From positions 1-64,000 of the IMG/VR virus record IMGVR_UViG_3300028840_007197: 64,000 nucleotides of DNA; one strand, given 5' to 3'. Positions 1 to 27,401 of this stretch are shown piece by piece (the stretch's first letter is position 1; each line of letters opens with the position of its first letter). This DNA comes from a virus. The notes under the pieces were generated by a model. The model did no database searches and was not told the origin of the DNA. It saw nothing but the letters and a program-made list of their open reading frames with translations. A program made the position numbers and the translations under genes.

Positions 1-3000
1 GAAGGGAGTTGGCCCCTTACAGCAACACCGGCGCTATCAACATTTAATTGACCTAAAATACCTATACCAGATGATATATCACTAATTGCGGTTATTGCAG
101 GACTGTCATTTGTTAAAGCTCTGATCTTACCGTTTACATTTAAACTTAATCCAGCAGAATCTGCAGTACCTATACCAACAGTACTAATTTGAGAAAAGCC
201 ACTTATATAGGCATTACCTTGAACATGCAAATCTGATTGGGGGCTCGCCGTGCCGATACCTAAATACCCAGCAGTAGTTATTCTAACTCTCTCAGTGTTA
301 TCAGGGAGGAAAGCGATATACCCGCCGTTTGTTCCCCAAGTACCAGCAGTAACTGTTCTAATTCTAAAGCCTGCACCGCTTCCTGTTTGACGCTGCATAA
401 GAACATCGGTGCTTCCGATCTCCATATATCGGTCAAAATTAGAAGCTTCAGTAAGCCTTATGATGTCACTGGAAGCTGATGCTCCACCTGTAATTTCTAC
501 TATTCTAGATGGGGCTGATGTTTGGATCCCCAGACTACCGTTTTCTATAAGGACATTACCGGTAGACTTTATAGCCCTGAGAATGAATCCACCAGTAGAG
601 TTACGAACATACAAGCTTGAATTAAATAGATCTACGTCAGTAGATGGAACTGAAGTATTAACGCCTACTCTGTTAGAACTAGTGTTAACCACGAAAATCT
701 GACTATTAGTATCAGAAAATGCTCTTAAACCTCCGAAGACATCAAGACGGTTTGAAGAAGGTTGAGTACCAATACCGGCATAGCCACTTATATAGACAGA
801 ACCTGACTGGTCTACACTGAATACGGTAGAGCTCTCAGAGTTAAATCCTACGAAACAATTGCCCGCAGCATCGGTAACTTGTCCTACGACGGCAGAAGAA
901 TTGCTTTTACCGACTATGGCGGAGGCGGTACTCGTGTTAACTACGGTGAGCGTGGTAAACGGGGCGCTATGGCTAATAGACGCACGTCCATCATCTACGT
1001 AAAGTCTATAAGTAGAACTCGTTGCGCCGATTCCAATATAGCTAAATTCGCTATAACTCAAAGAATAGACAGCACCTTTTTCATTTACACTGAATACGGG
1101 AGAGCCCACAGAGTTAAATCCTACGAAACAGTCTTCCGCAACATCGGTAGCTTGTCCTACGATGTCTCCGAAAACGTGTAACGCGGCTTGAGGATTCGTA
1201 GTCCCGATGCCAAGGCTTCCGCCTGTGAAATAGCTCGAACTGTTCCCATGAATTCGAACTACAACTGAATTATTCCGATAGACGTCTAGAACGCCATCAT
1301 CACTAGAGGCGTAAGCACGAAAGATAACGTCTGCAGAAGCAGAATCTTTAATTTGGAAATTACCTTTAACTTCTAATTTTTCTCCCGGATTAGCTGTTCC
1401 GATACCAACATTATTTCCAATCGTATATGGATAAAGGGCACCTGCTGCCTGGCTCCAATACGTTGAGGAACCTATTGCATTATCCACATAAGTCTTTACT
1501 GACCTCTCCGTAGGTACTGCGCTATAAGAATTACCAGATAATGTATCATCAATAGAGAACTCATTAATTTGAGTACCGACGCCGAGTTTAGCATAGCCAT
1601 TTACCTGTAAATCATATTGAGGAACCGTTGTACCAATACCTAGTTTTTCATCAGTACTCAGGTCACCAGTAAAATGTCCTTTACCCTCTGCCCAGATCGC
1701 ATAGTCCACGTTGTTCTGGCTGTTGACATAGATGCCATACGTCGTGCCGTCAACAGTCCCATCGTAATCTTGGTTTATGTACAGCCCGTAGGCATTGCCA
1801 GCAATCTTCTCTGTGGAAGTTGCGGTCGTCTGGTCGATATTCAAATACAATCCATAGACGCTGCTGCCAACATCTCCATCAGGGTCCACATTGATATATT
1901 GACCGTAGATATTACCATTTATTACGTGGGGAGTCTCCTGGTCGATATTCAGATACGCGCCAACAGCATCGCCAGTGATGGTCCCGGCGTTAAGGTCGAG
2001 ATAACCGTAGAATGCACGGGCGTTCTGATTCTCTACTCCAGCCGTACCAACAGAACCATTGTTATGTGCAAATGTCGCATAGTTTACATTTACATATCCG
2101 ATATTCCCGCTAGACTGATTGTAGTCGAACTTGGCATAATTGATAATCACATCGTCATTTCGGTCGGTGGCACCGCCGGTCTTCTCAATGTCATACCAGA
2201 TGCCGTAGTGATGCGTGGTCCACTCTTGCCCTGTGCGATCAAGGTGGATGCCCTTGACATCGGAGTGAGGCGTTGTGCCGCCCAGGGTGATTTTGCCACC
2301 CAGTACAGCATTTTTCGCCACACTTAAACCGCCATCCGTCTGCAAAGAGCCGTTCGTGGTAGTCGTGGCATCGATGGTGTCCTTGACATTTATTTTTCCA
2401 GCAAAGGTCGCTAGACCGTCAACGTCTACGCGCAATTTTTCTGTGCTATCAGGCATCAGCGAGATATACCCACCACCGCTACCCCAACTTCCCGCGTTGG
2501 CGGTGCGCAGTCGCAGACCAACATTCGACGCATTCTGACGCTGTATAAGAACATCAGTGCTTCCGATCTCCATATATCGGTCAAAATTAGAAGCTTCAGT
2601 AAGCCTTATGATGTCACTGGAAGCTGATGCTCCACCTGTAATTTCTACTATTCTAGATGGGGCTGATGTTTTTATCCCGAGACTACCGTTTTGAATTATA
2701 ATATTTCCAACGGTGGCAACAAGAGCGGATCCACTCCCGGAATTATCAATACGAATCACAGGCTCCGTCGAACCACCTGTAAGCTGCTTAGCTATGAGTG
2801 CTGGCTGATTAGATATTTGATCTATCTGAACCTGATCAGTTGTGAGAAGCTCCGTATTAATAACGGTAAGAGTACCATTAACGGAAAGATTATTACTTAT
2901 GGTGGCATCATTCAGATAACTGTTACCTGATACGGAGAGACTACTAATTGTAGAATCTCCTACAAACTTGGAATTTCCCCAAACATTGAAAAGATGAGTC

Positions 3001-6283: not shown

Positions 6284-6505
6284 ATGGTTAAGGTCGTTGA
6301 AGGAGTAGAGGGTTACTGGCACTATCATCTATCTGAGACAGGTATCTCGGGGCATCCGGCTCTATGTGGTAATAAAAGGGTCATGCATACCGAGATACCT
6401 CTCTCGACTTGGGGTAAAAAGAGCCATCTGAACGAAAAGTATTGTTTGGAGTGCGAGAAGAAAGCTGGTTCGAAGTGTCCTTCAAGTACCAGGTCCAACG
6501 GCTAA
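6284..6505 (+). CDS. small zinc-ribbon-like protein
   Basis: A 73-residue protein. The ATG at 6284 with AAGG upstream is preferred over a longer frame. It has H-Y-H near the start and C-L-E-C plus a later Cys at the end, and an A-L-C-G motif in the middle, giving a plausible treble-clef or zinc-ribbon arrangement. Function unknown. Its end overlaps the start region of the RNA ligase gene. Confidence 0.5.
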   Translation: MVKVVEGVEGYWHYHLSETGISGHPALCGNKRVMHTEIPLSTWGKKSHLNEKYCLECEKKAGSKCPSSTRSNG

Positions 6506-7824
6506 ACCCTCATGAGATGATCCTCGAAAGAGGAGTAAAGAAGCCTATAAGGGCCTTTATGAATGAGGCCTTATATGAGGCTTCTGAAGAGGAAATGTGG
6601 CGTCAGGCTGCCTGGGCCACAACCATACCCTCTGTCGAGTCCGTCGTCATAACTCCTGATGCCCATGCAGGAGCTGGGGTACCAATCGGTCTAGTGGTTG
6701 CTACCAAAGACTATGTCGCCCCTTGTGCAGCAGGGTACGATATATCCTGCGGCATGCTTTCTATGCGTACAAGCCTCATTGCTGAGAACATAAAGGATAA
6801 AATCATCAGGCGTTCCTGGATGCAGGAAGTGGAAAGCCGAGTGGCCTGCGGTTTAGGGGGTCATCGTGTAGACGGTCAGATCAGAATCAATGGTAATCTC
6901 TTTGAGGAGATACTTCAAAATGGTATACTGGCTCTTGATGCCCCCCAGAATATTCGAGGTCGCTTCGAACGAACACATCATATAGTGAAGAGATATGTTC
7001 GATTTAAGAAAGCGGCAGACCGTGGAATGCCCGAGCTGGCCAGTCTGGGGTCTGGAAACCATTTCCTTGAACTCCAACAGGACCAGAAAGGAACCGTATG
7101 GATTATGATCCACACGGGGTCTCGTGGATATGGGCACCAGGTAGCAACCGAATTCTTCAACAGAGGCTTTGAGTGGTGGAACCAAAGTCACCCCAACGAG
7201 ATACTCGGAAAAGGTCAGAAGGAACTCGTTTCCTTTCCAGTGGATTCTGAGATCGGTCAGGACTATCTCAATGCCATGAATCAGGCTGCTAACTACGCCA
7301 TAGTGAACAGATACCTCATCGCTAAAGCAGTAATAGAGGCCACGGAGAAGGTATTTAAGAGCACCCCGGAGATACTCTATGAAATAAGCCACAACCTCGT
7401 TCAATACGAGGGTGGCCTCTGGGTACATAGAAAGGGTGCCACAAGGGCCCTACCGGCCGGTCATGAGCTTCTTAAGGGATCTATTTTTGAGACCACCGGT
7501 CACCCTGTTCTGATTCCAGGCAGCATGGGTACTTCATCTGCTATTCTTACTCCAAAGGATAGCGAAAAATCCCTGCACAGCGTTAACCATGGCTGTGGAA
7601 GGGTAATGTCTCGCGGTCGGGCAAAACGGACTTTTGCCCAGGATGTCCTGAATAAAGAGATGGACGACATGGATATCCTCTATAACAGCAGGAATGTTCC
7701 TATTGATGAGTCCTTGCACTGTTATAAGGATATCGATGAGGTCCTCTCTACCGTTGAGGGAGCAGAACTTGCGATTACGGATATAAGGCTCTATCCAAGA
7801 GCCGTTATCAAGGGGGAGAGTTGA
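6442..7824 (+). CDS. rtcB: RtcB-family RNA ligase
   Basis: A 460-residue protein if translation starts at TTG 6442; ATG 6517 (435 residues) is the alternative, and neither has a good ribosome site. Family motifs occur in order: DAHAGAGVPIG (73-83), GYDISCGM with the manganese-binding Cys103, LGSGNHFLEL, HTGSRGYG, SHNL, the HRKGATRA segment containing the His that is guanylylated in RtcB, IPGSMGT and the final HGCGR. RtcB joins 2',3'-cyclic phosphate or 3'-phosphate RNA ends to 5'-OH ends using GTP and Mn2+. In a phage it most likely repairs tRNAs cut by host anticodon nucleases. The polynucleotide-kinase-like and macro-domain genes downstream support an RNA-repair role. Confidence 0.95.
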   Translation: MFGVREESWFEVSFKYQVQRLNPHEMILERGVKKPIRAFMNEALYEASEEEMWRQAAWATTIPSVESVVITPDAHAGAGVPIGLVVATKDYVAPCAAGYDISCGMLSMRTSLIAENIKDKIIRRSWMQEVESRVACGLGGHRVDGQIRINGNLFEEILQNGILALDAPQNIRGRFERTHHIVKRYVRFKKAADRGMPELASLGSGNHFLELQQDQKGTVWIMIHTGSRGYGHQVATEFFNRGFEWWNQSHPNEILGKGQKELVSFPVDSEIGQDYLNAMNQAANYAIVNRYLIAKAVIEATEKVFKSTPEILYEISHNLVQYEGGLWVHRKGATRALPAGHELLKGSIFETTGHPVLIPGSMGTSSAILTPKDSEKSLHSVNHGCGRVMSRGRAKRTFAQDVLNKEMDDMDILYNSRNVPIDESLHCYKDIDEVLSTVEGAELAITDIRLYPRAVIKGES

Positions 7825-8091
7825 TTGATATGTCTTCTGTGTTCCAGGGAATCAGCATTCAAGGAACACTTTGAAAAGCATCATCTGACTCCCAGATGTA
7901 AAAAGGGGAAGAGAACTATCGATGTCTGCATAGATTGCGGTAACCAGATACACAAACTTTTCACGATTAAAGAACTATGTGCCCTTAATACTTTGGATCT
8001 CTTATTGAATCATCCTAGGGTGAAAAAATGGTCCTTATGGGTTAAAAATAGACCCATAGGCATATGTATGAAGTCCAAAAAGAAACGCTAG
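7825..8091 (+). CDS. small HNH-type protein
   Basis: An 88-residue protein starting at TTG directly after the rtcB stop; AGGGGGAG (7811-7818) supports the start. It has CLLC, then E-K-H-H-L-T-P-R, then C-I-D-C-G-N-Q-I-H, which is the Cys4/His pattern of a compact HNH fold. The C-terminal half (N-H-P-R-V-K-K-W) matches the ending of a widespread small bacterial HNH protein. It may nick DNA or RNA using a divalent metal; homing activity is possible but there is no disrupted gene beside it. Operon position suggests it is co-expressed with the RNA ligase. Confidence 0.75.
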   Translation: MICLLCSRESAFKEHFEKHHLTPRCKKGKRTIDVCIDCGNQIHKLFTIKELCALNTLDLLLNHPRVKKWSLWVKNRPIGICMKSKKKR

Positions 8092-13201: not shown

Positions 13202-14752
13202 TTATCGGATTAAACCGGATTTCTCAGCCATCTTCGTATTCGAATAGAAGTTTATGTGCTCAGAATAACCCAAAAGAATACCAAAAAATTTATTGTAATA
13301 TTTGTTCTCTTGGAGACTTTGCTCTTTAATACTATCTAGACCATTTAACTTATATACAGAATGAGCCTTATGGTATACGAGGCTTTTAGCAGATATATAA
13401 ATGCGGTATCCTGCAATTTTAGCTCTCATGCAGTAATCGTTATCTTCGTATCCACCTGGGCTATACAGCTCATCAAAGATCCCTATTTTTTCTATGAGTT
13501 CTCTGAGTATCAAAATACAAAAACCGTGCAGATTTGGCACATTGGTGTCCCTGGATACATACCCGGCCCTCTGATACCCGCTTGCACACTCATTACCGAG
13601 AGGACCTGATAGGCCACAATAATCCTGCTCTATCATCGTATCATAGAGGTTCTCCAGCCACCCATCTTGTACCTGTGTATCGACATTCAGAATGCAGATA
13701 TCGGATTTAGGGTCAGCTGCCTTGATACCCTGATTGATAGCAATGGGAAAACCAAGATTAACTGGATTTAGAATATACTTGACTCCAGACGTCCCTAAAT
13801 ATTCCGGTGACCCGTCTTTCGAGCCATTATCAATCACTATAATCTCACAGGGCCTTTTGGTGTTCTGCCTGATATAGAAAAGACATTCCTTTAATAAATC
13901 CAAAGAGTTCCAGTTGGGAATTATGATGGAGCACTTCCTAGAAGGAAGACGCTCTTTTTTGATAAACCTTTGAAGCTGTTTTGGAAAAGTGGAAAAATCT
14001 TCAGGCACGGCTCGGTCATACTGCTGAGGAGTGACCGGATGAAGATGCCTCATCTGAGGCACCCAGTTCTTCCATACGCGGTCGTACCAATCCGGTATGA
14101 ATTCCTTAGCGTGGGAATTTATCTCCAACTTTCGCTTCATGTATGCGTCGTCCCTCGCATAAGACATATGATAGCATATAGCTACATCCGAGGGTATAAG
14201 GACACCATTATATTTATCTGCCCTGTTAATGAGTACAGCTGGGCCGGTCCGCATGGCTTCCGTAGTACCTATTCTGATACCATTGAAAAGAAAATTGGCC
14301 GTTTTCACGGCTATTAGCGGTCTGAAATACTCTCTAGGGGTTATGCAGTAGTAATCCTTCTTCCAATACGTGTTCCATTCCAAATGAAAGGAAACGTAGG
14401 ATGGATTAGAAGAGATATACCGTTTAATGTTCCGTACATGATAATCGTGATAGACCTCATCATTATCCACGATAAACGTGTAAGTATAGTGCTCCAGATA
14501 TAGAACAGAAAGACCATAATTTCTCTGGTCCCACTCATTGGTCCAATGACCCTGAATAAGCTGACACTTCGGATACTTTATGCATAGGTTACGGACATAC
14601 TCTATAGCTGCACTGTTATCACAGACTTGACCATTCCATGGAACGTCACTGATAAGGAAAAGAACCTTATCAGTTTCTTCAAGAAACGGCTCAAGAGACG
14701 GCCATAGATACTCAACGTCATCATATAAGCAGTACATCGTTGCAAACTTCAT
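13202..14752 (-). CDS. two-domain glycosyltransferase
   Basis: A 516-residue fusion. The N-terminal half (to about residue 260) has F-I-V-D-N-D-E-V-Y (a DxD site) in a GT-A-like domain. The C-terminal half begins S-I-I-I-P-N-W-N, I-I-V-I-D-N-G-S-K-D-G-S, N-L-G-F and C-I-L-N-V-D-T, a classic GT2 domain of the rhamnosyltransferase type, with G-Y-E-D-N-D-Y as catalytic acidic motif. Two active sites would allow two sugars to be added in turn. Likely targets are phage structural proteins or host surface polysaccharide. Confidence 0.85.
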   Translation of the reverse strand: MKFATMYCLYDDVEYLWPSLEPFLEETDKVLFLISDVPWNGQVCDNSAAIEYVRNLCIKYPKCQLIQGHWTNEWDQRNYGLSVLYLEHYTYTFIVDNDEVYHDYHVRNIKRYISSNPSYVSFHLEWNTYWKKDYYCITPREYFRPLIAVKTANFLFNGIRIGTTEAMRTGPAVLINRADKYNGVLIPSDVAICYHMSYARDDAYMKRKLEINSHAKEFIPDWYDRVWKNWVPQMRHLHPVTPQQYDRAVPEDFSTFPKQLQRFIKKERLPSRKCSIIIPNWNSLDLLKECLFYIRQNTKRPCEIIVIDNGSKDGSPEYLGTSGVKYILNPVNLGFPIAINQGIKAADPKSDICILNVDTQVQDGWLENLYDTMIEQDYCGLSGPLGNECASGYQRAGYVSRDTNVPNLHGFCILILRELIEKIGIFDELYSPGGYEDNDYCMRAKIAGYRIYISAKSLVYHKAHSVYKLNGLDSIKEQSLQENKYYNKFFGILLGYSEHINFYSNTKMAEKSGLIR

Positions 14753-17037: not shown

Positions 17038-19227
17038 TTAAATTTCGACCGCTACCTCAGAGAGCTCGAACGAGTACTTCACCCCATCGACTTCAAGGGT
17101 GTTCTCATCCCTGCTCTTAAACTCATCGAACCACTTCTTACCGAGTATAACAGAGAATTTCGTCTCCTGAATCGAAGACCGAACAGACTTGAGTGATGCA
17201 TTAAGCTTAGCAATTTCATCCGTTAGCCACTGCACCTTCTTAGCCTCATCCAGCTTCGAAGCACCCTTTTCGAAGAGATTGATACCCTCTTCAATCAGAG
17301 CCTCAACAGGAGTCCTGCTCTTCTTCGATGCAATCTTCTCCGCCACCTTTTTGACCGTGGGAAGGCTATTCAGACCAGCCATCTTAATCTCAAAGGACTT
17401 CGCCATGTACTGGTCCTGGGCCTCCTCCTTGTCCCTTGGGGGATTGTAAGACCAATCCCTATCAATCATCACACCATTCTGCTTCAAGAATTCAACCTGT
17501 TCATCCGTATACTGGGATGATACTGCACTCTGGTCCTGAGAAAGCTCTTTCTTATACCACTTCAGAGTCTTTATAGTGGCTTCGATCTTCTTCTCAATCA
17601 TGGCATTCTTACAGAGCTCGGTAGCCGAAGTCCTACCAGTAGCAATCTTCCTGTTCACGGCCGGAATCTTGCTGATATCGACTCCATAGATGCCATCAGA
17701 ACTGAAGGTGTCATCATACACCAGACCGAGGTTCTTAAGGAACTTATAGGTCCCCTGAGAAGAGCTCAGATAGAACCTCTTCATATGTACGCGGCCATCT
17801 TTGATGAACGTGTAATTCCTATGAACATAGGTCGGTAACGTCTCATCAAGGCCAAAGTCACTGGCTGTCTTACCATCCCTCTCCTGGAGCTCGATAATAC
17901 CGTTTACCGTGGTCTTCACGCTGAGATTGAGGCGGCTGTCATGCCAGGTAAGATTCTCAAAGAAGCACCGAGACATCTTATCAGCATGGAATGATGAATA
18001 CCCCTCACGGGTCTTTGAAGCCACCCCAATACGCTCATATGAAACCTTCTCGTGGTAGGGGTAGAAACAGGCTTCCTGGTCAGCCATGAGCATCTTAAGA
18101 AGGTCGAAGACACAGAAGGCATCTACGGGGGGAAGATAGTTCGGGTCCCTACCCGTCTGGAAACGTATTGAAACATTATCAATACTTTTGTTTATTGTAT
18201 CTTCGACTGCCCCGTACTCCTCGATGGTGAAAGCATTGGTCAGGCCATCAACAATGTGCTTATCCCCAATCTTACCAATGATTTCCATGGCCACATCGGT
18301 CTTAGTCTGCTGAGTAAGAACCAGGGCCGCTCCATAGAGGCTCTTACCAAGAACATCCTCTTCATCAGAGAAGAGAATATCCTTAATCTCGACTTTATCC
18401 CAGCTTTTCTTATTGGGCTTTTCGGAGCTGATATAATAGACCAGCGTGCTCTTACCATCCTGAGGACTGACATAGAGCTTACCGTCATCATCGATGGAAT
18501 GGAGCACCACGCCCTGATCGGTTACGGTATAGATGGCCAGGGGATCTTTGACAATGGGGTCGATCTCCTCCTTAGGCTCAGACTTACTGGAGAGATCCAC
18601 GAGCTTGGTAATGCTATTGGAGTACTCCGGAATAAGGGAGCTGTGAATAAGAAGAGACCCCAACCTCTCGGCCATCTTCTGGAGGAGCTCCTTATTATAG
18701 TAGGCACCATAACCAACAAACATGCTGGCATGAACCTTACCCTTAATGGCCTTGATGGCCTTATAAATGGACTCTATCTCATGGCTGTAGTTAGAGACCA
18801 CCGGATACCCATCCGTGAAAAAGTGCATCGAGAAGACCTTCGAGAATACCGAAAGGTCCTTTATCACGGTATCCGTATCGGCCAGGATTTCCGAGAAGCA
18901 GGTGGTGTTGCGTGAGGATGAATTTGCCTTGATGGCCTTTTCCAGTACCTTGTAGTCACTGTCATCGGATATCTTGAAGCCCTTGAAGACCCAGTTATAG
19001 TCCCCCTGACCCGAGAACCATCCAAGACTCAGTGTATCGTTCTTGGGGAGGCCTTTAGAAAGCACAATGAGTTCTTTGGTCAGTTCAGGAAGTGCCCAGG
19101 TCATGGACCCGGACCGGTCATAAATCCAAATATGGTTCACTGGCCCTTTTTTGGTAGTGACCTTTTTGACCTTTACTTCCTGTTCCACGACGGAGAGCTC
19201 TGAGGTAACCGGTACGTACCGAGGCAT
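17038..19227 (-). CDS. large von Willebrand A-domain protein
   Basis: A 729-residue protein. A vWA domain lies at about residues 32-210 with a complete-looking MIDAS start D-R-S-G-S-M (37-42), a later conserved Thr region (N-T-T) and F-F-T-D-G. The remaining 500 residues have no recognised domain; a lysine-rich coiled-coil-like stretch lies at about 560-690. No signal peptide or membrane helix. vWA proteins bind protein partners through a metal ion and often team with AAA+ ATPases. Its strong AAAAGGAG ribosome site can pair with an upstream segment, so translation may be controlled. Function unknown. Confidence 0.8.
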   Translation of the reverse strand: MPRYVPVTSELSVVEQEVKVKKVTTKKGPVNHIWIYDRSGSMTWALPELTKELIVLSKGLPKNDTLSLGWFSGQGDYNWVFKGFKISDDSDYKVLEKAIKANSSSRNTTCFSEILADTDTVIKDLSVFSKVFSMHFFTDGYPVVSNYSHEIESIYKAIKAIKGKVHASMFVGYGAYYNKELLQKMAERLGSLLIHSSLIPEYSNSITKLVDLSSKSEPKEEIDPIVKDPLAIYTVTDQGVVLHSIDDDGKLYVSPQDGKSTLVYYISSEKPNKKSWDKVEIKDILFSDEEDVLGKSLYGAALVLTQQTKTDVAMEIIGKIGDKHIVDGLTNAFTIEEYGAVEDTINKSIDNVSIRFQTGRDPNYLPPVDAFCVFDLLKMLMADQEACFYPYHEKVSYERIGVASKTREGYSSFHADKMSRCFFENLTWHDSRLNLSVKTTVNGIIELQERDGKTASDFGLDETLPTYVHRNYTFIKDGRVHMKRFYLSSSQGTYKFLKNLGLVYDDTFSSDGIYGVDISKIPAVNRKIATGRTSATELCKNAMIEKKIEATIKTLKWYKKELSQDQSAVSSQYTDEQVEFLKQNGVMIDRDWSYNPPRDKEEAQDQYMAKSFEIKMAGLNSLPTVKKVAEKIASKKSRTPVEALIEEGINLFEKGASKLDEAKKVQWLTDEIAKLNASLKSVRSSIQETKFSVILGKKWFDEFKSRDENTLEVDGVKYSFELSEVAVEI

Positions 19228-24548: not shown

Positions 24549-24624
24549 TGGCTGGGGTGTGAGGGTTCGAACCTCAAACCATTCGGTCCAGAGCCGAATG
24601 CTCTACCAATTGAGCTACACCCCA
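24549..24624 (-). tRNA. tRNA-Gln (anticodon CTG)
   Basis: Full cloverleaf: acceptor TGGGGTG/CACCCCA, D arm GCTC...GAGC, anticodon stem TTCGG/CCGAA with loop CTCTGGA (anticodon CTG), T loop TTCGAAC, discriminator G and an encoded CCA end. It reads CAG codons. Confidence 0.95.
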
Positions 24625-24633
24625 ATATAAAAA

Positions 24634-24914
24634 GGGTGGTCGACCGGAGTCGAACCGGCAAGGCATGATTAGGTCTCCTTATTATCGGCACAGGACTTCC
24701 TGCCGCTGTTTACAAACCCTCCTGGACCGTTACCGGATTCCAGGCAGCGTATCAGTGTCTTCCGCAAGCCGTAGAGGCCACTCCACAATCGCTACCCGCC
24801 CGCTTCCCTTTGTTTCGTTCCACAGACTTCCACGACCACGGGGTTCATGCCGGGTGATAAGCCCTCTCCCAATCCTGTTTGTCGGGCGCTCTCGCCAATT
24901 GAGCTACGACCACC
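24634..24914 (-). tRNA. tRNA-like gene interrupted by a structured insert of about 200 bases
   Basis: The 5' part (24914-24888) has acceptor strand GGTGGTC and a normal D arm GCTC/GAGC; the 3' part (24636-24658) has a T arm with TTCGACT and acceptor strand GACCACC, perfectly complementary to the 5' end. Between them no normal anticodon arm can be drawn. Instead, GGCATGA and TCATGCC (24845-24851 with 24662-24668) form a 7-pair helix that closes a 176-base insert. The insert contains a hairpin with GTAA tetraloop (24721-24744), a hairpin at 24771-24786 and one near 24686-24705. No CCA end is encoded. Best reading: a tRNA carrying a self-folding insert, perhaps an intron; anticodon cannot be assigned. 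It has no tmRNA tag frame. Confidence 0.55.
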
Positions 24915-24951
24915 ATAATACATGATATCAGTATTTCAAAGAACATTAAAG

Positions 24952-25024
24952 TTGGGGTATGTGGGCTTGAACCACAAACACGCGGCTTCAAAGGCCGTTG
25001 CTCTGCCCATTGAGCTATACCCCA
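24952..25024 (-). tRNA. tRNA-Gln (anticodon TTG)
   Basis: Acceptor TGGGGTA/TACCCCA, D arm GCTC...GAGC, anticodon stem ACGGC/GCCGC with loop CTTTGAA (anticodon TTG), T loop TTCAAGC, discriminator A. CCA is not encoded. It reads CAA (and CAG by wobble). Confidence 0.95.
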
Positions 25025-25090
25025 GTATATTTCATGCTTACTAAAAAGGCCCCTTTTACTACCATGAACAAATATTCAAAAGATTCAATA

Positions 25091-25225
25091 CTATTGAACC
25101 TCTTTTGTACGCTCTATATCATCAGAACTCACTAAGAGGGGAATCTGTTTATCATCCTGCCCTCTTGATAGCCTCGGGAAGAAGAAATTACCCCATGGGA
25201 CTTGCTCATAATTTAATGTTGTCAT
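25091..25225 (-). CDS. possible small protein between tRNAs
   Basis: A 44-residue open frame from ATG 25225 with weak AAGAG upstream. It contains W-G-N-F-F-F-P-R and an acidic end. It lies wholly in the 200-base gap between tRNA-Gln and tRNA-Pro and is followed by an imperfect inverted repeat (AAAAGATTCAAT / ATTGAACCTCTTTT, 25078-25105). No family recognised. Confidence 0.4.
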   Translation of the reverse strand: MTTLNYEQVPWGNFFFPRLSRGQDDKQIPLLVSSDDIERTKEVQ

Positions 25226-25237
25226 AACTCTTATCCA

Positions 25238-25315
25238 TGGTCGGAGTGACCGGATTTGAACCGATGACTTCCACGTCCCGAACGTGGCGCTCTAGCCAGA
25301 CTGAGCTACACTCCG
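25238..25315 (-). tRNA. tRNA-Pro (anticodon CGG)
   Basis: Acceptor CGGAGTG/CACTCCG, D arm GCTC...GAGC, anticodon stem CCACG/CGTGG with loop TTCGGGA (anticodon CGG), T loop TTCAAAT, discriminator A and encoded CCA. It reads CCG. Confidence 0.95.
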
Positions 25316-25325
25316 TCAACAAAAA

Positions 25326-25404
25326 TGGTCGGGGCGATAGGATTTGAACCTACGACCCTCTGGTCCCAAACCAGATGCGCTAAACCAGACTGCGCTACGC
25401 CCCG
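25326..25404 (-). tRNA. tRNA-Pro (anticodon TGG)
   Basis: Acceptor CGGGGCG/CGCCCCG, D arm GCGC...GCGC, anticodon stem TCTGG/CCAGA with loop TTTGGGA (anticodon TGG), T loop TTCAAAT, discriminator A and encoded CCA. It reads CCA and other proline codons. Confidence 0.95.
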
Positions 25405-25690: not shown

Positions 25691-26053
25691 TCATTCGATT
25701 ACAAGGAGCGCCTTCAAGCCTCTCGGAACGGGTACTCTATAGGCAATAACCCAAACAGTCTTTTCTGGATAATCGCCTATCGTATAGATACTTTCATATG
25801 AGTTGGCGATAGACATTATTCTGGCTTTCTCATATGACCAGACAATGATAGGGCAGCTTCTATCCTTACTAAGGCGAATAGCTGCCCCATCCACGAGGGC
25901 CTCTCTAATCCTCTTAGGCCTGAATATTGCGTTTTCAGCAACACAATATTTCATGTACTCGTGAACTATAATGATATTCCTAGTGGGGGGAAAGACATAA
26001 GCCTTCCTCCCACCGGAGGTCTCATCCTCCTGTGCTATCTTGTACCGACTCAT
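25691..26053 (-). CDS. hypothetical protein
   Basis: A 120-residue protein from ATG 26053; a TTG at 26062 is possible. It overlaps the end of the vWA gene by 32 bases, so the two are translated together. Alpha/beta pattern with N-I-I-I-V-H, P-I-I-V-W-S and W-V-I-A-Y-R strands. No motif recognised. It could be a partner of the vWA protein; this rests only on coupling. Confidence 0.55.
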   Translation of the reverse strand: MSRYKIAQEDETSGGRKAYVFPPTRNIIIVHEYMKYCVAENAIFRPKRIREALVDGAAIRLSKDRSCPIIVWSYEKARIMSIANSYESIYTIGDYPEKTVWVIAYRVPVPRGLKALLVIE

Positions 26054-27401
26054 GAACCCCAAACGATCGCATCATACTCTCTTGAGCACTGGAATTATAG
26101 GACAAGTTCATACCACAGACAGATGATGCCCGAGACTTTGCCATGGTATAGCCATATGAACCAGCAAGTTTAGCGCCGGAAGTATAATATACTGCTGCAT
26201 TGCCACTGTTTTCTATCATGGTCTGGAAACTACCCTTAAGTGCCGTCGAGTTCTCAAACCAGGCGTTATTTTCTGCAAGGAGGAGACCGGCGGTATAGAC
26301 TTCACGGGCATCATCATACTGCCCTTTATCCGCCAGCTTTTTGGCATCTTTGTGGATCTTCTGGGCCTCGATAAGCAGCAGTTGAGCCTTCACGTCTTTG
26401 TTCGCCTCAGTACTAGCATCATCTGGTTTCACGTACCTGATTTTTGCCTTTGCTTCAAGAACAGACCGCTCCTTGGTCTCGACATCAAGATAATCGACTC
26501 TTATGTCACAGACTTTAGTGGCCCTAGCTGTAACAGCCTGAGATGCGCTTGGCAGTTTAAGCTTGAAGAGAACATGCTTACTCTCACCATAGAACACGTC
26601 TTCAAGAGTAAATAGTACCTTACCGTCCGTTATACCCCGATAACCGGCCGACTCCTCATAGGAAATTTTACTGAGAAAGTCCACCAGCTCAACATTCCCT
26701 GAGGGGGTGACTTCCACTTTAAGGTCTTGAACGGCCATGGAAAGTAGACCACCAAGCTCCATAGCGAAGGCTCTCTTGCAATCATCCTCATTCTGAATAT
26801 AGAAATGATTTCCCCGGCCCCTGTTAGACATTGAAAGAAGGAGCTCAGGGTCGTAATCATGCCCAAACCCGAACGTGGAGAGACTCACATCGGGCCTTAA
26901 CTGGCTGACAATGTTAACCAGGTCCTCACGACCTGTCAGACCAGAAGTAGGAAGGCCGTCAGTAAGGAAGACGATTCTGACTATTTTTTTCTTATCAGAG
27001 GATGCAGCGCGTTCAAGTGCCCATTCTAGGGCCTCACTCATATTGGTCATGCTATGGGTGTAAGTATTATTTATAGAACTCTTAGCGTTAGCCTTCCCCG
27101 ATGAATCCATTACGGTTACCGGTATGATTTCCCAGCAGTTATCGCTAAAACCGATAACAGTCATGGTATCGTTCTCAGTAAGATTATCAATGAGCTTGTT
27201 GACCGTATCCTTCATGGAATCAACTTTTTTGCCAGCCATAGAACCCGAATAGTCAAGAGCAAGGACCATATGGAGGGGCGTTCGCTTGGAATCGGCCTTC
27301 TCGGGGACGTGAAAAACGACATCCATATGGACTTCGTTTTCCTTGTTGAAGGCAACCTTTTCGTGATCGAAGACAGCACGGACATTGAGCTTGGAGGACA
27401 T
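26022..27401 (-). CDS. von Willebrand A-domain protein, YfbK-like
   Basis: A 459-residue protein. The vWA domain (about 42-225) has MIDAS D-Y-S-G-S-M (residues 50-55), a T-N-M-S segment and F-L-T-D-G-L. A beta-rich region (230-335) and a helical repeat-like region (about 340-395, resembling a TPR pair) follow, as in bacterial YfbK-type proteins. No signal peptide. It has AGGAG six bases before the ATG and its own strong promoter 150 bases upstream. Probable metal-dependent protein-binding scaffold; partner could be the Ycf46-like AAA+ protein encoded nearby (inference). Confidence 0.85.
   Translation of the reverse strand: MSSKLNVRAVFDHEKVAFNKENEVHMDVVFHVPEKADSKRTPLHMVLALDYSGSMAGKKVDSMKDTVNKLIDNLTENDTMTVIGFSDNCWEIIPVTVMDSSGKANAKSSINNTYTHSMTNMSEALEWALERAASSDKKKIVRIVFLTDGLPTSGLTGREDLVNIVSQLRPDVSLSTFGFGHDYDPELLLSMSNRGRGNHFYIQNEDDCKRAFAMELGGLLSMAVQDLKVEVTPSGNVELVDFLSKISYEESAGYRGITDGKVLFTLEDVFYGESKHVLFKLKLPSASQAVTARATKVCDIRVDYLDVETKERSVLEAKAKIRYVKPDDASTEANKDVKAQLLLIEAQKIHKDAKKLADKGQYDDAREVYTAGLLLAENNAWFENSTALKGSFQTMIENSGNAAVYYTSGAKLAGSYGYTMAKSRASSVCGMNLSYNSSAQESMMRSFGVHESVQDSTGG

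What the first reader, a model, noticed from the sequence alone, without database searches (positions are those of the whole stretch)
24634..24914. tRNA gene interrupted by a structured insert closed by a long-range helix
Acceptor and T/D arms are intact and complementary, but the anticodon arm is replaced by about 200 bases that fold into several hairpins, one with a GNRA (GTAA) tetraloop, and are closed by GGCATGA/TCATGCC. A further ACAAAC/GTTTGT pairing (24877-24882 with 24712-24717) would cross it. This is not a tmRNA (no tag frame, no G-U acceptor identity, normal D arm). It may be a novel intron-like or riboregulatory insert.
Basis: partly seen in the sequence, partly recalled or inferred. 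Interest (0 to 1): 0.75.

Follow-up and report, generated by a model that had tools for sequence, protein, structure and literature searches.

The report
tRNA-His-like phage RNA lacking anticodon arm
In a phage tRNA cluster one gene keeps the ends and both side arms of a histidine tRNA but carries a unique 200-base sequence where the codon-reading arm should be; it cannot be an ordinary intron-containing tRNA and is either a non-decoding tRNA-shaped RNA or a recently wrecked tRNA gene.

Summary
In detail: on the minus strand, 24914→24635, an intact tRNA body (8-bp acceptor, D arm, T arm) has its anticodon arm replaced by about 200 nt. The 8-bp acceptor with G-1:C73 and an 89% match over its first 27 nt to tRNA-His of a related phage identify it as tRNA-His-derived. 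No Rfam family matches the insert (no group I, tmRNA or RNase P, even at E≤10). No single excision restores a 5-bp/7-nt anticodon arm, so a simple intron is excluded. Weak signals favour a real structured RNA: insert GC 56% in a 43.6% window, a closing helix flush with the T arm (1.6% of shuffles), and compatibility with the tRNA arms (4%). No relative of the insert was found in three related phage records, viral contigs, phages, plasmids or GTDB genomes (the largest sets by short exact patterns only), so covariation cannot be tested. Best reading: a non-decoding tRNA-shaped RNA working like the Y RNA YrlA or a tRNA scaffold; a broken tRNA gene is almost as likely. Relatives carry a Ro60/Y-RNA locus and two circularly permuted tRNA genes.

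The parts
24635..24914 (-). whole element: tRNA-His-like RNA, 280 nt, anticodon arm replaced
   Evidence: not called by ARAGORN or Rfam tRNA
24907..24914 (-). acceptor stem 5' strand GGTGGTCG (G-1 first)
   Evidence: pairs perfectly with 24635-24642; pair probability 0.98
24635..24642 (-). acceptor stem 3' strand CGACCACC (C73 last; no encoded CCA)
24888..24904 (-). D arm GCTC-AATTGGCGA-GAGC
   Evidence: RNA positions 8-27 match G001 tRNA-His at 19 of 20 nt
24643..24659 (-). T arm GCCGG-TTCGACT-CCGGT
24868..24886 (-). anticodon-like stem CCCGA/TTGGG at the correct tRNA spacing, but with a 9-nt loop and no U33
   Evidence: probability 0.83 given the tRNA arms; a stem at this exact place in 4% of shuffles
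24852..24864 (-). small hairpin GGG-CTTATCA-CCC
   Evidence: constrained MFE
24845..24851 (-). closing helix 5' strand GGCATGA
   Evidence: probability 0.96 given the tRNA arms
24662..24668 (-). closing helix 3' strand TCATGCC
24721..24744 (-). hairpin CCTGGA..CCG-GTAA-CGG..TCCAGG with GNRA loop
   Evidence: pair probability 0.84-0.95
24686..24705 (-). hairpin CGGCAGG..CCTGTGCCG
   Evidence: pair probability about 0.5, in constrained MFE
24877..24882 (-).
   Evidence: chance-level number of 6-bp pairs
24712..24717 (-). GTTTGT, 3' half of the crossing pair; competes with helix 24719-24714/24676-24671

Best explanation
The gene makes a tRNA-shaped, non-decoding RNA. It is transcribed with its neighbours in the tRNA cluster; its tRNA-His body is processed, given CCA and kept stable like a tRNA (inferred), while a domain of about 200 nt sits where the anticodon arm was. 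Lacking an anticodon, it cannot read codons. It most likely works as a tRNA mimic: the body recruits or occupies tRNA-binding proteins (HisRS through G-1:C73, processing and modifying enzymes, perhaps a host anticodon nuclease that cannot cut it), and the grafted domain binds a partner or merely fills the place. Shown: the anatomy, the His-type acceptor, no possible single-intron tRNA. Inferred: expression, stability, partner and function.
For: All tRNA arms outside the anticodon are intact, with 8 of 8 acceptor pairs Watson-Crick. His identity: 89% over the first 27 nt to G001 tRNA-His (that tRNA-His is called normal). Insert is GC-rich like the tRNAs (56% vs tRNAs 55-59%, window 43.6%). Insert permits the tRNA fold better than 96% of shuffles. 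Closing helix flush with the T arm, 1.6% of shuffles. No single excision yields a cloverleaf. The phage encodes RtcB, and the relative G005 has a Ro60 gene beside four Y-RNA-like units, one with a permuted tRNA-like domain, so tRNA mimics occur in this phage group.
Against: Folding energy equals shuffles (z -0.05). No relative of the insert anywhere searched. The supporting statistics are weak and post hoc. No Ro60 in the 94.9-kb record and no Y-stem motif of G005 in the element. No expression data.
Confidence: 0.4

Rival explanations
1. Broken tRNA gene: a tRNA-His gene lost its anticodon arm in a recent recombination that put about 200 nt of foreign sequence in its place; the RNA has no function.
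For: Insert absent from three relatives; one (G001) has a normal tRNA-His. MFE equals shuffles. G005 carries a truncated tRNA 5' half, so tRNA decay occurs in this group (L037:6078-6040). A recent event would leave the other arms intact.
Against: Insert permits the tRNA fold better than 96% of shuffles; closing helix abuts the T arm. It is not a simple insertion: the anticodon arm itself is gone.
Confidence: 0.36
2. Intron-containing tRNA-His: the insert is a group I or other intron that is removed to give a functional tRNA.
For: Location near the anticodon, size, a GNRA hairpin, and a partial hand-made fit to P7/P8/J8-7 of group I on the sequence.
Against: No excision of one stretch gives a 5-bp stem with 7-nt loop at tRNA spacing, even without requiring U33 or purine 37. 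No Rfam intron match at E<=10. No P3 partner found by hand.
Confidence: 0.08
3. Assembly chimera: unrelated sequence joined inside a tRNA-His gene.
For: Single metagenome contig, no second record, tRNA repeats invite misjoins, GC differs from the contig.
Against: Both halves fit one tRNA with 8 perfect acceptor pairs, and the insert is only about 200 nt, so two independent misjoins would be needed.
Confidence: 0.07
4. tmRNA-like RNA, charged with histidine instead of alanine.
For: tRNA-like ends, closing helix in the P2 position, an 18-codon ATG frame inside (MNPVVVEVCGTKQREAGG, frame 0).
Against: No Rfam tmRNA match, no G3:U70, full D arm, no tag-like hydrophobic end.
Confidence: 0.04

Closest known systems
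YrlA (bacterial Y RNA with tRNA-like domain, Rfam RF02553)
   Same: tRNA-like acceptor/D/T body in which another stem takes the anticodon arm's place; linked to Ro60 and RtcB; a role of its tRNA-like domain as competitive inhibitor of an anticodon nuclease has been proposed (PMC7790460).
   Different: In YrlA the tRNA part is circularly permuted and the 5' and 3' ends form the Ro60-binding stem; here the ends are the acceptor stem and the other stem is closed by a large domain. The only YrlA match (24600-24661, E 0.0065, below cut-off) joins this T arm to the next tRNA's D arm and is spurious.
Engineered tRNA scaffold
   Same: RNA domain grafted in place of the anticodon arm of a tRNA so that the tRNA body carries it (concept from general knowledge; the method is used in PMC3753655).
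   Different: That is a laboratory construct; here the sequence is natural and its insert unknown.
tmRNA
   Same: tRNA-like ends with the anticodon arm replaced by a long domain.
   Different: No G3:U70, intact D arm, no tag frame of the usual kind, no Rfam match.
tRNA genes with group I introns
   Same: Structured insert of about 200 nt near the anticodon.
   Different: Exons do not rejoin to a cloverleaf; no Rfam intron match.

Membership tests
functional tRNA-His | G-1:C73 extended acceptor, D and T arms | tested here: met
   8-bp acceptor, D and T arms
functional tRNA-His | anticodon arm with GUG in a 7-nt loop, U33 | tested here: not met
   no such arm before or after any single excision; tRNA models do not match
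group I intron | conserved catalytic core recognised by RF00028 | tested here: not met
   no match at E<=10 with permissive filters
group I intron | exons that join to a functional RNA | tested here: not met
group I intron | self-splicing | not testable with these tools
   needs in vitro transcription
tmRNA | alanine identity G3:U70 | tested here: not met
   all eight acceptor pairs are Watson-Crick
tmRNA | match to tmRNA covariance models or ARAGORN | tested here: not met
YrlA / bacterial Y RNA | permuted tRNA-like domain (T arm before D arm) | tested here: not met
   order here is D arm then T arm; no permuted tRNA in the window
YrlA / bacterial Y RNA | Ro60 gene nearby | tested here: inconclusive
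   none in the 94.9-kb record, which is a fragment; present in relative G005
YrlA / bacterial Y RNA | Ro60-binding end-stem motif shared with the Y-like units of the relative | tested here: not met
   motif of the G005 units is absent from the element
YrlA / bacterial Y RNA | binds Ro60 | not testable with these tools
   needs a binding assay

The most novel reading that the evidence does not exclude
A phage has turned a tRNA-His gene into a natural tRNA scaffold: a histidine-acceptor tRNA body that carries a new 200-nt RNA domain in place of the anticodon arm, used as a tRNA mimic against host tRNA-targeting enzymes or as a carrier of a regulatory RNA.
Probability: 0.2. Interest if true: 0.75.

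Novelty: new variant of a known kind. Interest (0 to 1): 0.4.

Why it matters
If the RNA is made and stable, it would be a natural counterpart of the engineered tRNA scaffold and a second topology, beside YrlA, for replacing a tRNA's anticodon arm by another RNA domain. It would also add a tRNA mimic to the RNA-repair equipment (RtcB, and in relatives Ro60, Y RNAs, Thg1, CCA enzyme) of this phage group. If it is a broken gene, it is ordinary decay of a phage tRNA.

Tried and rejected
Group I core fitted by hand (P7 AGGGUUU/AGACCU with bulge, P8 hairpin, J8/7 AUAAUAAGG): no P3 partner and no Rfam support. Archaeal-type bulge-helix-bulge intron: looked for by hand at the closing helix, not found. 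ARAGORN on all single excisions is too permissive: shuffled inserts gave as many calls, so it was replaced by strict geometry. Copy of the acceptor strand inside the insert (GUGGUCGU, RNA 76-83): could pair with the 3' acceptor strand, but a 7-mer match in this length is not rare; left as a curiosity. Origin of the insert within the phage: no match beyond 13 nt. Relatives: scans with two helicases and a virion protein gave G001, G002, G005; the vWA-protein scan gave none. Pattern scans for the 5' junction, for a His-type tRNA with a 223-253-nt gap, and for two insert stretches gave nothing. A covariance model of the insert finds only itself; being built from one sequence it has little reach. 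The PolA insertion in G001 is an intein, not an intron.

Full report
What is there. The window is bases 1-64000 of a 94,906-base viral record. Five tRNA-like genes lie together on the minus strand at 24549-25404; ARAGORN and Rfam call four of them: Gln(CTG), Gln(TTG), Pro(CGG) and Pro(TGG). The fifth, 24914 to 24635, is the finding. It has an acceptor stem of 8 perfect pairs (GGTGGTCG/CGACCACC), a normal D arm and a normal T arm. Read with standard tRNA numbering, the outermost pair is G-1:C73, the mark of tRNA-His (established knowledge), and the first 27 nt match tRNA-His of a related phage at 89%. Between D and T arms lie 228 nt instead of about 23.

Is the structure more than chance? Three weak signals point the other way. 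The 7-bp helix lies flush with the T arm (1.6% of shuffles). A 5-bp stem starts exactly where an anticodon stem should (4%), though with a 9-nt loop and no U33. The insert lets the tRNA arms form at a cost of 0.83 kcal/mol against 4.2+-2.3 with shuffled inserts (4%). These tests were chosen after seeing the sequence. Insert GC is 56%, like the tRNAs and unlike the window at 43.6%.

What it is not. A permissive Rfam search of the region gives no group I, tmRNA or RNase P match. For every way of cutting out one stretch, with variable loops of 3 to 24 nt, no product has a 5-bp stem and 7-nt loop at tRNA spacing, even with the U33 and purine-37 rules dropped. A single-intron tRNA is therefore excluded as far as sequence can do so. 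tmRNA fails on G3:U70, the intact D arm and the family models.

Relatives. Conserved phage proteins led to three related records. G001 (IMGVR_UViG_3300037088_000882; DnaB-like helicase 52% identical) has about 20 tRNAs including a normal tRNA-His next to a Thg1 gene and a CCA-adding enzyme. G002 (IMGVR_UViG_3300037851_001309) has no tRNA in its 75.8 kb. G005 (IMGVR_UViG_3300038499_000012; 76% identical virion protein) has Pro and Gln tRNAs and a truncated tRNA half. None holds the insert, by BLAST or by a covariance model made from it. Nor do phages and plasmids by BLAST, or viral contigs and GTDB genomes by exact patterns. Exact patterns would miss a diverged relative, so absence from the big collections is not proven.

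Context that bears on function. The window encodes RtcB. G005 encodes a Ro60-type protein (TROVE over cut-off; ORF) directly beside four RNA units that share the motif GGCGT...TGTTCC in a bulged end stem; one of them contains a permuted tRNA-like domain and matches YrlA at E 1.2e-6, below Rfam's cut-off. G001 has two circularly permuted tRNA genes (T arm, acceptor closed by 4 or 6 nt, D arm, anticodon arm), both enclosed in a 12-bp outer stem, a 5x5 internal loop (UUAC[CA]/AACU[CU]) and an 8-9-bp stem. So RNAs that reuse a tRNA body recur in this group, but the element itself shares neither the Y-stem motif nor the permuted order.

Most likely explanation. A non-decoding tRNA-shaped RNA (0.40): the tRNA-His body is processed and bound by tRNA enzymes, the anticodon arm has given way to another domain, and the RNA serves as a mimic or carrier. 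YrlA is the nearest working model; a competitive-inhibitor role against an anticodon nuclease has been proposed for it (PMC7790460), and TROVE proteins with a tRNA-like partner are noted for jumbo phages (PMC7824862). A broken tRNA gene (0.36) is nearly as likely, because the insert is unique and no more stable than shuffled sequence. Intron 0.08, chimera 0.07, tmRNA-like 0.04.

Verdict.

Noticed in passing
L025:~1872-1722 (-) and ~1626-1456 (-), record IMGVR_UViG_3300037088_000882: Two circularly permuted tRNA genes in a related phage: T arm, then acceptor hairpin closed by 6 or 4 nt, D arm and anticodon arm, inside a 12-bp outer stem with a 5x5 internal loop UUAC[CA]/AACU[CU]; the flanks can also be drawn as a bulge-helix-bulge. 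No YrlA match at E<=1. No report of permuted tRNAs in phages was found in the held papers.
   Followed up: partly
L037:~590-1055 (-) and L038:877-2406 (-), record IMGVR_UViG_3300038499_000012: Ro60 (TROVE plus vWA-like) gene next to four Y-RNA-like units with a shared end-stem motif GGCGT...TGTTCC; the longest holds a permuted tRNA-like domain (YrlA E 1.2e-6, below cut-off).
   Followed up: partly
L025:8079-8768 (-), 7995-8071 (-), 6352-7662 (-): Phage-encoded Thg1 (tRNA-His guanylyltransferase, Pfam 1.9e-22) directly before tRNA-His, followed by a CCA-adding enzyme.
   Followed up: yes
L004:~14069-14460: PolA gene of the related phage carries a mini-intein.
   Followed up: partly
window 6442-7824 (+): RtcB RNA ligase (Pfam 1.2e-99).
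   Followed up: partly
window 17038-19227 (-) and 26022-27401 (-): Two proteins with a vWA-type DxSxS motif; the first has no Pfam match and belongs to PHROG 2426 of unknown function.
   Followed up: no
L003:14035-14808 (-): Protein with a Fibrobacter succinogenes major domain at the edge of the record, a hint of a Bacteroidota/Fibrobacterota-type host.
   Followed up: no
L025:~9790-9738 (-): tRNA-Trp-like gene with a very short D arm (13 bits with RF00005).
   Followed up: no
L037:~6078-6040 (-): Truncated tRNA 5' half ending in a run of T.
   Followed up: no
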